Shown in pieces: positions 34,784-38,490 of a stretch of 64,000 bases of DNA. The stretch's first letter is position 1. Every line of letters begins with the position of its first letter. Under the pieces are notes generated by a model. The model worked only from the letters and a program-made list of their open reading frames with translations. It ran no database searches and was not told where the DNA came from. The stretch comes from Rivularia sp. T60_A2020_040 (GTDB taxonomy: Bacteria; Cyanobacteriota; Cyanobacteriia; Cyanobacteriales; Nostocaceae), in contig JACYMD010000007.1 of assembly GCA_015272215.1 (NCBI GenBank), positions 1-64,000 on the forward strand. The letters are read 5' to 3'. Made by a program: the position numbers and the translations under genes.

Positions 34784-34826
34784 ATTTTCCCTATCTCTTT
34801 TTTTTCACCAGTGTGCAGCACAACAA

Positions 34827-34858
34827 ACCCCTTCTTCATTTACGGAGAGGGGGATTTT
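34827..34858 (+). terminator. Possible terminator after the ycf45-like gene
   Basis: CCCCTT...GAGGGG imperfect stem (loop TCTTCATTTACG region) followed by ATTTTAATTATTGTTTT, 45 bases after the stop codon. The stem is short and has wobble pairs. Confidence 0.45.
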
Positions 34859-34989
34859 AATTATTGTTTTATATCACAAACGACAAGAATAATATTATAG
34901 TACAAATTTAAGAGAAAGTTAATTAATGGTTAGATTATGTTTGTTTTTTGGTTAATTATTTGGTTGGTGGATGAAAATAGATAATTGAA

Positions 34990-35040
34990 TCTGGCGGTTT
35001 AAACCGCTGCTACACAAACGAAACCCACCTACGTGGGTTT
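34990..35040. repeat. REP-like repeat A, left of the tnpA locus
   Basis: CTGGCGGTTTAAACCGC followed by GCTACACAAACGAAACCCACC and a short ACCCACCTACGTGGGT hairpin. The same order of elements (CTGGCG...CCGC-GCTACACAAACGAA...) occurs at 36860-36935 in direct orientation and inverted at about 36971-37048 and 37080-37160. It directly follows the 3' remnant of tnpA. Confidence 0.7.
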
Positions 35041-35046
35041 AAATGA

Positions 35047-35128
35047 TTAGTTATGATTTAGTTCCCAAGTTGGAATTATGGATTTTTGTTGGTGGTGGTA
35101 GGGTTGATTTTTAATATAATTGGCTACC
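35047..35128 (-). pseudogene. 3' fragment of split, frameshifted tnpA (Y1 transposase)
   Basis: On the minus strand from 35128 the frame reads VANYIKNQP, carrying the Y1 catalytic-tyrosine helix (YIKNQ pattern). After one extra base in the CCCTTACCAC run, it continues in another frame as YHHQQKSIIPTWELNHN and stop. The HH...IIP.WE ending is what I expect for this TnpA family. Without correcting the shift the product ends in a non-family tail (PLPPPTKIH...). Joined to the fragment ending at 36497 it gives ...SHDGIDQ-VANYIKNQ with no lost or gained codon. Confidence 0.8.
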
Positions 35129-35265
35129 AGAACCGCGCACAGTGCCCCTGATTTCTAATTATGGGGGTGTAGTGCGCTACGGGAATTCATTCCCCGTGAT
35201 GCTCTAAAAAGTAATTATTGATTTTTAGAAAATGGTGGTAAAGTAGAGTTAGGAGGCATTCATAG

Positions 35266-36462
35266 ATGTTTAATCTGACTTACGAATTCAAATTAAAGCC
35301 AACTAAAAATCAAATAAATTTATTTGAAGAGTGGTTAGAAACTCACAGACGAGTTTATAACTATGCTTTATCTGAACGTAAAGACTGGTATAAATCCCGG
35401 ACTTGTCAAATTAACGCTTGTAGCCTCCACAGTTGTTACATTATAAGAGCCGACGCGCCGCGTCCAACGTTCGCTTCTCAATGCAAGTCTTTAACTGCTG
35501 CGAGGAAAAGTAATGAGTATTTAAACAAAGTTAATGCTCAATCCTTACAGCAAACATTGAGAAGAATTGAAAAAGCTTTTGTGAGTATGTGGGAAAGGAA
35601 TCATGGGTTCCCGCGTTTTAAAAAAGTTGGACGGATGCGGTCTTTCTCTTTTCCGCAATTAGGTAAAAATCCGCTGCAAAATGGATTTATCAAACTGCCT
35701 GTAATTGGACAAGTAAAACTGAGACAATCCAGAGAGATTCCAGATGGGGGAATTTTAAAACAAGCACGTATAGTAAAGCGTGTTTCTGGATGGTATGTAA
35801 TGTTAACTGTTCAGTGGGATTGTAGCTACGCACAACCAATACCACACGGCGAGGGAATAGGGATTGACGTAGGGCTAATTTCAATGGTTGCAACTTCCAA
35901 TGGACTTTTAATTAAGCGTCCAAAGTTTTTTGTTGAGGCGGAAGGCAAGCTTAAATTGCTGCAACAACGTGTCAGTAGAAAGCACAAAGGATCGAATAAT
36001 TGGTTAAAAGCTCACAAGAAAGTTGCCAAATTACATGAATACGTTGCTAATTGTAGTAAAGACTGGCATAGAAAGTTATCACATCAGTTATGTAATAACA
36101 ATGGGATGATATTTGTAGAAGATTTGAACCTTGTGGGGCTATCTAGAGGAATGCTAGGTAAGCATTGCTTAGATGCGGGATTTGGTCAATTCTTTAATAT
36201 CCTCGAACAAACTTGTTTTAAGCGTGGTGTTTTTTTTCAAAAAGTTGATGCCCGAAAAACTTCTCAAATATGTCCTAATTGCCAACATGAGACAGGCAAG
36301 AAAGTATTAGCTGAGCGTATTCATAAATGTGATAATTGCGGCTATCAAACTGATAGAGATATTGCAGCCGCACAAGTAGTTCTAATTAGAGGACTTGCAG
36401 CTGTAGGACATACAGTCAAGATGCTTAATGAGGGTAAAGTCGTTGGACTCCCTGTGAGCTAA
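35266..36462 (+). CDS. tnpB: RNA-guided endonuclease TnpB
   Basis: 398 residues. TnpB is the transposon-encoded RuvC nuclease, an evolutionary relative of Cas12, guided by an omega RNA made from the right end of the element. The N-terminal helix-turn-helix opens FNLTYEFKLKPTKNQI. RuvC acids are visible: Asp201 in GIGIDVGLIS, Glu285 in FVEDLNLVGLS, Asp363/365 in QTDRDIAAAQ. The zinc-finger cysteines are C336/C339 and C355/C358. All key residues are present, so it looks active. The IAAAQ ending of the third RuvC motif, instead of VNAAxN, marks a clade I have seen in cyanobacteria. AGGAGG-like sequence precedes the ATG at 35251-35256. Confidence 0.95.
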   Translation: MFNLTYEFKLKPTKNQINLFEEWLETHRRVYNYALSERKDWYKSRTCQINACSLHSCYIIRADAPRPTFASQCKSLTAARKSNEYLNKVNAQSLQQTLRRIEKAFVSMWERNHGFPRFKKVGRMRSFSFPQLGKNPLQNGFIKLPVIGQVKLRQSREIPDGGILKQARIVKRVSGWYVMLTVQWDCSYAQPIPHGEGIGIDVGLISMVATSNGLLIKRPKFFVEAEGKLKLLQQRVSRKHKGSNNWLKAHKKVAKLHEYVANCSKDWHRKLSHQLCNNNGMIFVEDLNLVGLSRGMLGKHCLDAGFGQFFNILEQTCFKRGVFFQKVDARKTSQICPNCQHETGKKVLAERIHKCDNCGYQTDRDIAAAQVVLIRGLAAVGHTVKMLNEGKVVGLPVS

Positions 36463-36496
36463 GAATCCCCTTCCATTTATGGATGGGGAGTGTCAA
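36350..36496 (+). ncRNA. Probable omega RNA region of the TnpB element
   Basis: In TnpB systems the guide RNA derives from the 3' end of tnpB through the right end, with the guide taken from flanking DNA just past it. Here that would be roughly the last 110 bases of tnpB plus the RE hairpin (36467-36488), with the guide starting at 36497 (TTGATCTATACC..., which is tnpA sequence). Boundaries are inferred; no promoter or processing signal was identified. Confidence 0.45.
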
Positions 36497-36829
36497 TTGA
36501 TCTATACCATCATGACTGACGGTAAATGCTCCGTAACTTCCTTGCCATTTAAAGAATTCACCCGGTTTGATTTCGTGGGTGACAAAATGCGATGAACTAC
36601 CTTTGATATTTTGGATCAAGTCAGATACTGATAAAGTAGGAGAAAGACCTATTAATAAATGTACGTGGTCTTCAACGCCGCCGACAGCAATCATTGTGCA
36701 TCGTAATTGTTCGCAATGTTTAATAATTGCAGCGTAAATATTTTGTTGTATATCGGGTGTAATTAAAGGTAATCTATCCCAGGTAGCCCAAACAAGGTGT
36801 AAATACAATTGGGTGAAATTGGATCTCAT
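36497..36829 (-). pseudogene. 5' fragment of tnpA, HUH/Y1 transposase (RAYT-type), split by the TnpB element
   Basis: The first 111 codons: SNFTQLYLHLVWATWDRLPL, the HUH motif in VEDHVHLLIGL (His55, His57), KGSSSHFVTHE, and WQGSYGAFTVSHDGIDQ. The frame then runs into the TnpB element and reads 23 unrelated codons. The catalytic Tyr helix is on the far side of the element (35128 downward). The protein is of the single-domain Y1 type called REP-associated tyrosine transposase, fitting with REP-like repeats on both sides. With the split it cannot make an active enzyme. Confidence 0.85.
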
Positions 36830-36859
36830 ATTATTAATGTTTTTTAAATAGGTAAAAAA

Positions 36860-36935
36860 TCTGGCGCTTTGTTACCGCAGCTACACAAACGAAGTCCGCC
36901 TATGCGCTAAGGCGCACGCTACGCTAACGCGGACT
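36860..36935. repeat. REP-like repeat B, right of the tnpA locus
   Basis: CTGGCGCTTTGTTACCGC-AGCTACACAAACGAAGTCCGCC, in the same orientation as repeat A, with a nested GCGCACGCTACGCTAACGCGGAC insert that pairs with the GTCCGC just before it. Confidence 0.65.
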
Positions 36936-36964
36936 AAAGATTTAAAATCGGATAAAATAGATTA

Positions 36965-37186
36965 TATTCTTTATAACCCCTGCTACGGTGGGTTTTGTCT
37001 GTGTAGCCGCGTTAGCGTAGCGTGCCGAAGGCATATTCAATCGCCAGGTTAATTAAATCGGATAACATACATTTATTCTTTATAACCCCTGCTACGGTGG
37101 GTTTTGTCTGTGTAGCCGCGTTAGCGTAGCGTGCCGAAGGCATATTAAATCGCCAGGTTAATTAAAAATCGGATAACATATATTCT
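36965..37186. repeat. Tandem duplication (109 bp x2) of inverted REP-like repeats C and D
   Basis: Two nearly identical units, ATAACCCCTGCTACGGTGGG at 36973 and at 37082, i.e. a period of 109 bp. Each contains GTGTAGCCGCGTTAGCGTAG, GTGCCGAAGGCAT and ends TCGCCAGG. Read on the minus strand each is CCTGGCGATT...GCGGCTACACAGACAAAACCCACC, the inverted form of repeats A and B. The duplication reaches to within about 30 bp of the bioA start and may carry or displace its promoter. Confidence 0.75.
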
Positions 37187-37212
37187 TCCAATCCAAACCC
37201 CCAAAACAACCA

Positions 37213-38490
37213 ATGCACCCAAACATCTGGTATCCCTTTACCCAAGCAAAAACTTCTCCTCCACCTCTTAAAGTAAAATCGGCTCGTGGAATTTGGCTGG
37301 AGTTGGAAGACAAACGCAAAATTATGGACTGCATCTCTAGTTGGTGGGTAAATCTTCATGGACATTCTCATCCTAAGATTGCCGAAGCAATTTATCGTCA
37401 AGCGCAAGAATTGGAACAGGTGATTTTTGCGGGATTTACTCATCAACCAGCGGAAACACTCTCAGAACAATTAGTTAAAAAACTTCCAAATGGATTAAGT
37501 AGGGTTTTCTTTTCCGATAACGGCTCAACTGCGGTAGAAGTTGCGCTGAAAATGGCTTATCAATATTGGGTAAATCAAAATCAACAGCGTCAGAAGTTCA
37601 TTGCTTTTCAAGGAGCGTATCATGGGGATACATTTGGAGCAATGTCTGTGGGTTCGCGATCGCTATTTTCTCAAGTTTTTTCTGATATGTTGTTTAAGGT
37701 GGATTTCTCACCTTTTCCTGAAACTTATATCGGTGATTCTAATATTGAAGAGAAGGAAGAAGTAGTTTTAACTTTATTGAAAGAAACATTAGAGCGAAAT
37801 TGTCAAGAGTATGCGGGGATTATTATTGAACCTTTGGTGCAGGGTGCTGGTGGAATGCGGATGTGTAGAGTGGAGTTTTTGCAGAAATTACAACAATTAG
37901 TTAAACAATTTGATATTTTATTGATTTTCGATGAAGTAATGACTGGGTTTGGTAGAACTGGGGAATGGTTTGCTTGTCTTAAAAGTCAAGTTACACCGGA
38001 TATTATTTGTTTATCAAAGGGGATTACAGGAGGTTTTTTACCGCTTTCAGTTACTATATGTACGGAGAAAATCTACGATACTTTTTACAGCGATGACCCG
38101 ATAAAAACACTGTATCACGGTCATAGTTACACGGCGAATCCTTTAGGTTGTGCTGCTGCTTTAGCTTCTTTGGAATTGATGGTAGAAAATCAAGTTGTTT
38201 TTAATAGTATGGCAGCGAAACATTTAAAATATTTGGAAGTTTTGCATGGAAATTCAAAAGTTGAAAAGTTGCGAGTAACGGGTACAATTGCCGCAATGGA
38301 TATTGTAAGTACGCAAGAATCCGGGTACTTAAATCAAGTTAGTTTGGAAGTTAGAGAAAAAGCTTTAGAAAAAGGTTTACTTTTACGTCCTTTGGGAAAT
38401 GTACTTTATATAATGCCGCCTTATTGTATTACTGATGAAGAATTATCGGAAGTTTATCAGGGAATTTATAGTATTTTGCAGAGTATTTAA
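37213..38490 (+). CDS. bioA: Adenosylmethionine-8-amino-7-oxononanoate aminotransferase
   Basis: 425 residues, PLP-dependent class III aminotransferase making 7,8-diaminopelargonate in biotin synthesis, with S-adenosylmethionine as amino donor. It starts with the BioA-typical HPNIWYPFTQ. Also visible: DCISSWWVNLHGHSHP, FSDNGSTAVEVALKM, FQGAYHGDTFGAMS, PLP-binding IFDEVMTGFGRTG, and Schiff-base Lys in CLSKGITGG, then YHGHSYTANPLGCAAA. The other bio genes are not next to it. The promoter region lies in or beside the duplicated REP-like repeats. Confidence 0.95.
   Translation: MHPNIWYPFTQAKTSPPPLKVKSARGIWLELEDKRKIMDCISSWWVNLHGHSHPKIAEAIYRQAQELEQVIFAGFTHQPAETLSEQLVKKLPNGLSRVFFSDNGSTAVEVALKMAYQYWVNQNQQRQKFIAFQGAYHGDTFGAMSVGSRSLFSQVFSDMLFKVDFSPFPETYIGDSNIEEKEEVVLTLLKETLERNCQEYAGIIIEPLVQGAGGMRMCRVEFLQKLQQLVKQFDILLIFDEVMTGFGRTGEWFACLKSQVTPDIICLSKGITGGFLPLSVTICTEKIYDTFYSDDPIKTLYHGHSYTANPLGCAAALASLELMVENQVVFNSMAAKHLKYLEVLHGNSKVEKLRVTGTIAAMDIVSTQESGYLNQVSLEVREKALEKGLLLRPLGNVLYIMPPYCITDEELSEVYQGIYSILQSI

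What the first reader, a model, noticed from the sequence alone, without database searches (positions are those of the whole stretch)
35047..36829. A TnpB-only element sits inside a RAYT-type tnpA, and excising it restores the frame to the codon
The minus-strand tnpA fragment ends ...SHDGIDQ at 36497. The sequence beyond the left end of the TnpB element resumes VANYIKNQ at 35128. Joining them gives an uninterrupted Y1 transposase through its catalytic tyrosine helix. That defines both ends of the TnpB element (35129-36496) with high precision. It also shows one HUH-transposase locus being inactivated by a member of a related system whose own transposition requires a TnpA it does not carry. The TnpB guide sequence would match tnpA at this site.
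Basis: partly seen in the sequence, partly recalled or inferred. Interest (0 to 1): 0.75.

Follow-up and report, generated by a model that had tools for sequence, protein, structure and literature searches.

The report
TnpB transposon inside a REP transposase
In a filamentous cyanobacterium, a small mobile element that carries an RNA-guided nuclease but no transposase has jumped into a transposase gene that appears to look after a family of tiny palindromic repeats, knocking it out; such nesting is ordinary, but the broken gene looks like a little-known kind of repeat-associated transposase.

Summary
Joining 36497 to 35127 gives a 137-codon transposase; the stated left end would give GSQLY*. 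Two same-genus genomes carry the uninterrupted gene at this locus, a third a decayed one, and a second near-identical element here confirms both ends. The element is IS608-like: target CTAC, right end GAAT-hairpin-TCAA. Left target and guide covary in relatives (24 CTAC/AG, 23 TTAC/AA, 1 exception; 48 of 72 loci scored). TnpB is intact and a guide-RNA-like structure covaries at its 3' end. No tnpA was detected beside 71 other copies. The broken gene is not a canonical RAYT: it matches TnpA-Y1 subclass 1.2, listed in print as without REPs. Yet 43 of 48 close homologues have GTAG-tagged REPs within 300 bp, and two tnpA clades track two REP types within genera (p 0.0007, 0.0003). 'RAYT-type' is wrong as a family label but probably right about function; that is the most interesting result. 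Activity was not tested.

The parts
35128..36496 (+). TnpB-only IS608-type element, 1369 bp
   Evidence: second copy in the same genome, 98% copy in G186, orthologous empty sites
35124..35127 (+). CTAC target retained on the left (left cleavage site; expected TAM of TnpB)
   Evidence: present at both sites in G000 and at the G186 copy; present in the empty orthologues
35141..35144 (+). AGTG, putative left guide tetranucleotide, followed by the left hairpin (35145-35166)
   Evidence: covaries with the target tetranucleotide in relatives; the left hairpin folds but not better than shuffles (z -1.46)
35266..36462 (+). tnpB, 398 aa, intact (HTH, OrfB_IS605, TNB domains; three acidic positions aligned with ISDra2 TnpB)
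36400..36489 (+). reRNA/omega-RNA-like structure: stems overlapping the end of tnpB and the right end
   Evidence: 23 of 35 predicted pairs counted: 98.2% of cells paired, 49 double changes versus 10.1 in shuffles, 0 of 500
36463..36496 (+). right end: GAAT, hairpin CCCCTTCCATTTATGGATGGGG, AGTG, TCAA cleavage site
   Evidence: z -3.11; same tetranucleotides as IS608 (PMC5934647)
36497..36516 (+). expected TnpB guide segment (TTGATCTATACCATCATGAC), which is tnpA sequence
   Evidence: position directly 3' of the right end; one mismatch (third base) to the intact orthologues
36497..36829 (-). tnpA (TnpA-Y1 subclass 1.2), first 111 codons
   Evidence: Pfam Y1_Tnp; orthologues 90-92% identical
35047..35127 (-). 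tnpA remainder: 26 codons with the tyrosine helix, and stop
   Evidence: frame and orthologues; tyrosine aligned with ISDra2 TnpA
36425..36829 (-). present chimaeric ORF, 134 aa, ends in antisense of the element; lacks the tyrosine
34985..35045 (-). REP-like double palindrome downstream of tnpA (GTAG-tagged unit at 34994-35013)
   Evidence: z -4.46
36864..36884 (-). REP-like unit upstream of tnpA (degenerate loop)

Best explanation
A TnpB-only member of the IS200/IS605 family with IS608-type ends was inserted, as single-stranded DNA, 3' of a CTAC in the last quarter of a Y1 transposase gene. An IS608-type TnpA acting in trans did this; a candidate of that class is seen in a sister genome, none was found in this one. 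The insertion removes the catalytic tyrosine and so inactivates the transposase. TnpB, loaded with an RNA from the end of its own gene and right end, now reads its guide from tnpA. It should cut a CTAC-plus-tnpA allele that lacks the element, including the scar left by excision and still-empty chromosome copies if the host is polyploid (recalled for filamentous cyanobacteria), favouring retention and spread of the element by repair. The inactivated gene is a subclass 1.2 TnpA that most likely mobilises its own clade-specific GTAG-tagged REP palindromes, that is, a REP transposase of the IS200 branch. Shown by sequence: insertion, ends, frame, empty orthologues, intact tnpB, covarying end code and RNA structure, REP association. 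Inferred: helper in trans, TnpB cutting, REP mobilisation.
For: Frame join; second copy with different flanks; two intact and one decayed empty orthologue. Purifying selection on tnpA: dN/dS about 0.16 (0.038/0.235 and 0.045/0.288) against two sisters. GAAT...TCAA right end in 66 of 72 loci and left target-guide covariation 24/23/1/0 in the 48 of 72 scored, matching the IS608 tetranucleotides in PMC5934647 (passages). No tnpA detected, with two TnpA queries at E 1e-4, in the stored flanks (up to about 1.5 kb) of 71 of 71 other copies. In sister G189 a tnpA followed by a tnpB-like ORF (by eye) has the same right-end hairpin type and a left end TGAC|CAGAA...CAAG. Covarying 3' RNA structure. TnpB aligned with ISDra2 TnpB. 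REP association: 43 of 48 loci, against 1 hit in 289 kb of control. Two clades against two REP types, within-genus permutation p 0.0007 and 0.0003 after removing flank copies, no cross-association (p 0.19, 0.97).
Against: No activity of any part was measured. No TnpA with matching ends was found in this assembly; the one intact IS200-type TnpA (C130) lies at a contig end, so its right end is not in the data and the scan cannot decide. 24 of 72 element loci gave no scorable left end. One scored locus (L246, CTAC with AAAG) breaks the end code; of six related loci with a longer spacing, left out of the count, three (L064, L066, L067) would break it and three (L068, L069, L071) would fit. The left hairpin of the window copy is no more stable than shuffles (24 of 200 at least as good). 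Printed work lists subclass 1.2 as without REPs (PMC6006769). Some genomes without this tnpA at E 1e-40 hold REPs, such as G139 with 15 of type 1 and G080 with 35 of type 2. Same-genus sisters also hold other, weakly scoring Y1 proteins with open frames of 180-217 aa (class not tested) that could act on REPs there.
Confidence: 0.85

Rival explanations
1. tnpA and tnpB are two genes of one autonomous IS605-type element, arranged tail to tail, and tnpA normally ends inside the overlap.
For: The two ORFs overlap at 36425-36462 and are convergent.
Against: Intact orthologues continue through the tyrosine helix with no element. The second copy and the 98% copy in G186 have no tnpA detected beside them. 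The element's right end lies inside tnpA.
Confidence: 0.02
2. The broken gene is a plain IS200-type transposase that only happens to lie among REP palindromes; it has no part in REP spread.
For: NCBIfam calls it IS200 (80.4 bits, cut-off 55) and not RAYT. PMC6006769 lists no REPs for subclass 1.2. REPs occur in some genomes without the gene at E 1e-40 (71 of 154 for type 1).
Against: REPs sit near fixed distances in inverted orientation (nearest upstream '-' 32 of 35, nearest downstream '+' 33 of 38). REP type and number track the tnpA clade within genera, with no cross-association. At E 1e-40 the gene is single-copy in 58 of the 63 genomes with a match, unlike a spreading IS.
Confidence: 0.2
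3. A canonical class 2 RAYT (TnpA-REP) was interrupted.
For: Flanking GTAG-tagged REPs and low copy number.
Against: Score 29.7 against a cut-off of 80 for the REP-associated family. Y motif is YIKNQ..HH, not Y...NP (motif table read).
Confidence: 0.05
4. The TnpB element is a dead or exapted copy with no mobility or guide function.
For: No helper TnpA with matching ends was found in this assembly.
Against: Two copies in this genome differ at 5 of 1369 positions and both keep an open 398 aa tnpB. A 98% copy lies at another site in a sister genome, so the element moved recently. RNA structure and the right end are conserved.
Confidence: 0.1

Closest known systems
IS608 / ISHp608 (IS200/IS605 family)
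   Same: Right end GAAT - hairpin - TCAA, left target of the form NTAC with a guide 5' of a subterminal hairpin, no target duplication (IS608 values read in PMC5934647, passages)
   Different: Left target CTAC with guide AGTG instead of TTAC with AAAG; no tnpA in the element (tnpB only)
TnpB-only elements of the IS200/IS605 family (often called IS1341 group; name recalled)
   Same: tnpB plus ends, no transposase; a DNA match, often partial, in 114 of 217 family genomes
   Different: This copy lies inside a transposase gene of the same superfamily
ISDra2 TnpB RNA-guided nuclease (8BF8, 8EXA)
   Same: Alignable over residues 70-383 with the three acidic RuvC positions and the zinc-ribbon domain (catalytic positions recalled); RNA structure overlapping the gene's end
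   Different: Expected TAM CTAC rather than the TTGAT of ISDra2 (recalled)
TnpA-Y1 subclass 1.2 (Quentin et al. 2018, PMC6006769)
   Same: Y---Q--HH signature, WQ, DHVH, low copy number, Cyanobacteria
   Different: That paper lists no REPs; here REPs flank and track the gene
REPtrons: TnpA-REP / RAYT with GTAG-tagged REPs (PMC3733652, PMC8266576; passages)
   Same: Low-copy Y1 gene bordered by GTAG-tagged palindromes that are also dispersed in the genome
   Different: The protein belongs to the IS200 branch (class 1), not to class 2

Membership tests
IS608-type IS200/IS605 element | Insertion 3' of a specific tetranucleotide, no target duplication | tested here: met
   empty orthologues and two further copies: CTAC retained on the left, TCAA at the right end
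IS608-type IS200/IS605 element | Guide tetranucleotides 5' of subterminal hairpins that pair with the cleavage sites | tested here: met
   GAAT...TCAA in 66 of 72; left pair covaries 24/23/1/0 in 48 of 72 scored; binding not tested
IS608-type IS200/IS605 element | Own Y1 transposase tnpA | tested here: not met
   no tnpA hit at E 1e-4 or better in the stored flanks of 71 of 71 other copies; so a TnpB-only derivative
TnpB RNA-guided nuclease | OrfB_IS605 and TNB domains with intact catalytic residues | tested here: met
   (catalytic positions in ISDra2 recalled)
TnpB RNA-guided nuclease | reRNA/omega-RNA at the 3' end of the gene | tested here: met
   structure with covariation, 0 of 500 shuffles; no Rfam match at E 1; transcription not tested
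TnpB RNA-guided nuclease | Guided DNA cleavage next to a TAM | not testable with these tools
   needs a bench assay
TnpA-Y1 subclass 1.2 | Y motif Y---Q--HH | tested here: met
   62 of 62 complete homologues, 6 of 68 loci dropped; joined window protein YIKNQPYHH
TnpA-Y1 subclass 1.2 | HUH motif DH[IV]H and WQ | tested here: met
   window protein has DHVH and WQ; among homologues 53 of 62 and 61 of 62
TnpA-Y1 subclass 1.2 | Low genomic copy number | tested here: met
   63 of 217 genomes with a match at E 1e-40, 68 matches in all, at most 2 per genome
TnpA-Y1 subclass 1.2 | No REPs (as listed in PMC6006769) | tested here: not met
   REPs within 300 bp at 43 of 48 closer homologues; other inverted palindromes at 15 of 20 more distant ones
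Canonical RAYT (class 2 TnpA-REP) | Family profile NF047646 above cut-off | tested here: not met
   29.7 bits against a cut-off of 80
Canonical RAYT (class 2 TnpA-REP) | Y motif of the Y...NP kind | tested here: not met
   YIKNQ..HH
REPtron (REP-associated Y1 transposase, any class) | GTAG-tagged palindromes at the gene and dispersed in the genome | tested here: met
REPtron (REP-associated Y1 transposase, any class) | Transposase cleaves its REP | not testable with these tools
   needs purified protein and REP oligonucleotides

The most novel reading that the evidence does not exclude
Subclass 1.2 TnpA proteins are a second, independent lineage of REP transposases arisen from the IS200 branch. 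Each clade has its own cognate double-palindrome REP, in Nostocales and possibly in Chloroflexi, Gemmatimonadetes and others. In this genome a TnpB element has naturally knocked one out and reprogrammed itself, through its guide, against intact alleles of that transposase, so that an RNA-guided selfish element drives the loss of a domesticated REP transposase in a polyploid host.
Probability: 0.5. Interest if true: 0.7.

Novelty: new variant of a known kind. Interest (0 to 1): 0.5.

Why it matters
The insertion gives a clean natural test case: exact ends, a known empty allele in sister genomes, an intact TnpB and a predicted guide that matches the interrupted gene, so retention by guided cutting can be tested in a cyanobacterium. 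The larger gain is the gene it broke. The NCBI family models call the six such proteins I scanned IS200/IS605 transposases, but their neighbourhood and the genome-wide REP counts say they are REP transposases. That would widen REP biology beyond class 2 RAYTs and give cyanobacterial REP families a transposase. This genome, next to two sisters with the intact gene, is a natural knockout for asking whether REPs stop spreading.

Tried and rejected
Rejected: tnpA and tnpB as one element (empty orthologues). Element start at 35129. Canonical RAYT. The disrupted tnpA as helper of the element: the REP tag GTAG does not fit the end code that the element follows (inference). C130 TnpA as helper: not decided, because its contig stops before a right end and the scan printed only loci with a right end. 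Recurrent TnpB insertion into this gene: 1 of 68 tnpA loci, the window's own, holds one. Other guide targets in this genome: a search allowing 3 mismatches found 3 places, all with 3 mismatches, one of them the element's own junction. Rfam: 0 matches at E 1 or better in 34800-37300. Paper searches with no result: TnpB, TAM, CTAC as whole words; TnpB, homing, TnpA, excision, scar.

Weak points of my own tests. The left-end scan accepted only [CT]TAC and A[AG][AT]G at spacing 10-17, so other codes were invisible to it; 24 of 72 loci were unscored, and L270 was resolved by a hand-written choice. The rows are related, so the Fisher value is not a probability. The RNA structure was predicted on the alignment on which it was counted, from 29 of 58 distinct ends picked by hand, and I counted 23 of the 35 predicted pairs. 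The REP type 1 pattern came from the window and its nearest relatives, and type 2 from the flanks of the clade it was then tested on; the 'present in 10 of 10' count is partly circular, and repeats the test after subtracting flank copies, counting five genomes with both clades (G007, G079, G081, G162, G165) in both tests. The 30 loci outside the family tested for flanking inverted palindromes were hand-picked from 79; 20 of 30 exceeded 20 block-of-two shuffles (19 of 28 without two cyanobacteria). In one search, 6 of 68 loci (the interrupted gene and incomplete matches) were dropped. REP counts per genome were typed by hand into scripts.

Full report
Observation. On the minus strand tnpA starts at 36829 and stays open to 36497; the ORF then runs into antisense of the element and stops at 36425. 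Joining 36497 to 35127 gives a 137-codon protein; joining to 35128, as the finding states, gives GSQLY*. A second copy (C61:1659-3027) has unrelated flanks and differs at 5 positions. Matching ends sharply at 36496 on the right and at 35124 on the left, so CTAC (35124-35127) is common to both sites. The element is therefore 35128-36496, 1369 bp, with CTAC as retained target.

Empty sites. G186 and G189, same genus, carry tnpA at 92% and 90% protein identity with collinear flanks. They read GATAAA|GTAGCC where the window has GATCAA, then the element, then GTAGCC. G188 has a decayed gene that aligns over 204 columns straight across the junction but lacks a middle part; in the loci read for G185 and G191 no tnpA was alignable between the flanking genes. 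dN/dS between the joined window gene and the two sisters is about 0.16, so the gene was under selection until recently. The displaced part holds the tyrosine aligned with that of ISDra2 TnpA (catalytic role recalled).

The element. tnpB is intact, with HTH, OrfB_IS605 and TNB domains and a full-length match to the guided TnpB family (287 bits, cut-off 100). It aligns with ISDra2 TnpB through the three acidic positions. Among 217 family genomes, 114 have a DNA match, many of them partial. I read 72 loci: the two copies here, a degenerate one here with a stop, and 69 from other genomes. GAAT...TCAA closes the right end in 66 of 72. In the 48 of 72 with a left end at 10-17 bases spacing, target and guide pair as CTAC/AG (24), TTAC/AA (23), CTAC/AA (1), TTAC/AG (0). 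IS608 has TTAC/AAAG and TCAA/GAAT (PMC5934647, passages). The pairing rule I used (second, first and fourth letters) is recalled, but fits both IS608 pairs. L242 has the same start of the left end as the window element (CAGAACCGCG) but TTAC with AAAG, a paired switch. No tnpA was found beside the 71 other copies at E 1e-4 with two TnpA queries. The left hairpin of the window copy is not more stable than shuffles (z -1.46); the right one is (z -3.11).

Helper. This genome has one intact IS200-type TnpA, at C130 near a contig end, and three partial or broken ones besides the window's gene. In sister G189 a tnpA (L288) is followed by an ORF that looks like a tnpB by eye (our TnpB gave no tblastn hit there) and the right end GAATCCCCCGCCTTATAGGCGTGGGGAGTTATCAA. 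By eye, its left end is TGAC|CAGAAAGCGAGACG-CAAG-CCCC, which obeys the same rule. A TnpA of this kind is the likely helper in trans. That is inference.

Guide RNA. An alignment of 29 of 58 distinct 3' ends gives 35 predicted pairs, 11 with a double change. Of these I counted 23, at 36400-36489: 98.2% of cells pair; 49 cells have double changes against a shuffled mean of 10.1 (0 of 500), and sliding the partner by one base drops pairing to about half. PMC10278001 (abstract and passages) describes TnpB making such RNA from its own mRNA and says it likely maintains the transposon. The guide position holds TTGATCTATACCATCATGAC. The intact sister alleles differ at its third base and carry CTAC next to it. 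No other CTAC-plus-guide site with fewer than 3 mismatches over 19 bases is in this genome.

The broken gene. NCBIfam scores the joined protein as IS200 (80.4, cut-off 55), not REP-associated (29.7, cut-off 80). PMC6006769 (passages and section 18) defines subclass 1.2 by Y---Q--HH, WQ, DH[IV]H, low copy number and presence mostly in Cyanobacteria and Bacteroidetes, and lists no REPs. All 62 complete homologues of 68 loci have Y---Q--HH; 61 have WQ; 53 have DH[IV]H.

REPs. Of 48 loci at 71% identity or more, 43 have GTAG-tagged palindromes within 300 bp, 30 on both sides, mostly in inverted orientation, against 1 hit in 289 kb of 69 control loci and 2 in 112 kb of their own farther flanks. Of 20 more distant loci 1 has that type, but 15 have other inverted palindromes on both sides. 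Genome-wide, after removing flank copies, type 1 averages 5.62 in the 48 genomes with the closer clade, 1.60 in 15 with only the other clade and 1.44 in 154 with neither at E 1e-40; type 2 averages 0.98, 21.13 and 0.89. Permutation within genera gives p 0.0007 and 0.0003; cross-associations give 0.19 and 0.97. Without the window's genus, p is 0.006 and 0.001. In that genus G000, G186 and G189 hold 23, 61 and 32 of type 1 and none of type 2, while G187 holds 0 and 57; G185, without the gene at E 1e-40, holds 19 and 8, so the link is not strict. GTAG REPs of filamentous cyanobacteria are known (PMC3733652, passages and section 16). Five searches of the held open-licence library listed no paper that I recognised as tying them to subclass 1.2 (listings, with passages of PMC8266576), but supplements could not be read.

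Conclusion. The insertion is a well-defined new case of a known kind. The RAYT label is wrong as a family name, yet the evidence points to a REP transposase from the IS200 branch, which is the novel part.

Noticed in passing
window 36940-37180: Two near-identical copies of a roughly 110-bp unit upstream of tnpA, each a REP-like palindrome whose loop holds another small repeat (GCCTTCGGCACGCTACGCTAACGC); G186 has four REP copies at 72-bp spacing there and G189 one.
   Followed up: partly
L026 (G186) 171-387 bp upstream of tnpA: Tandem amplification of REPs at exact 72-bp spacing beside an intact tnpA, as expected if the gene product copies REPs locally.
   Followed up: no
L206, L217 (Gemmatimonadetes), L186, L201 (Chloroflexi, Anaerolineales), L221 (Capsulimonas): Subclass 1.2-like TnpA genes in other phyla also have long inverted palindromes on both sides (ungapped match scores 32-48 against shuffle maxima 10-14).
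   Followed up: partly
G000:C113:5335-6534: A third, 77% identical tnpB in this genome carries a TAA stop and has TTAC with guide AAAG, so two end codes coexist in one genome.
   Followed up: partly
G000 whole genome: 17 TnpB-like matches, some of them pieces of one gene, against one intact IS200-type TnpA: TnpB copies far outnumber possible helpers.
   Followed up: no
G139, G140 (type 1: 15, 10); G080, G077 (type 2: 35, 14): Genomes with many REPs but no subclass 1.2 tnpA at E 1e-40: lost transposase or another one at work.
   Followed up: no
L064, L066-L069, L071: Related TnpB elements sharing flanks on both sides, with a longer spacing between target and guide; probably one old insertion or nesting in another repeat.
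   Followed up: no
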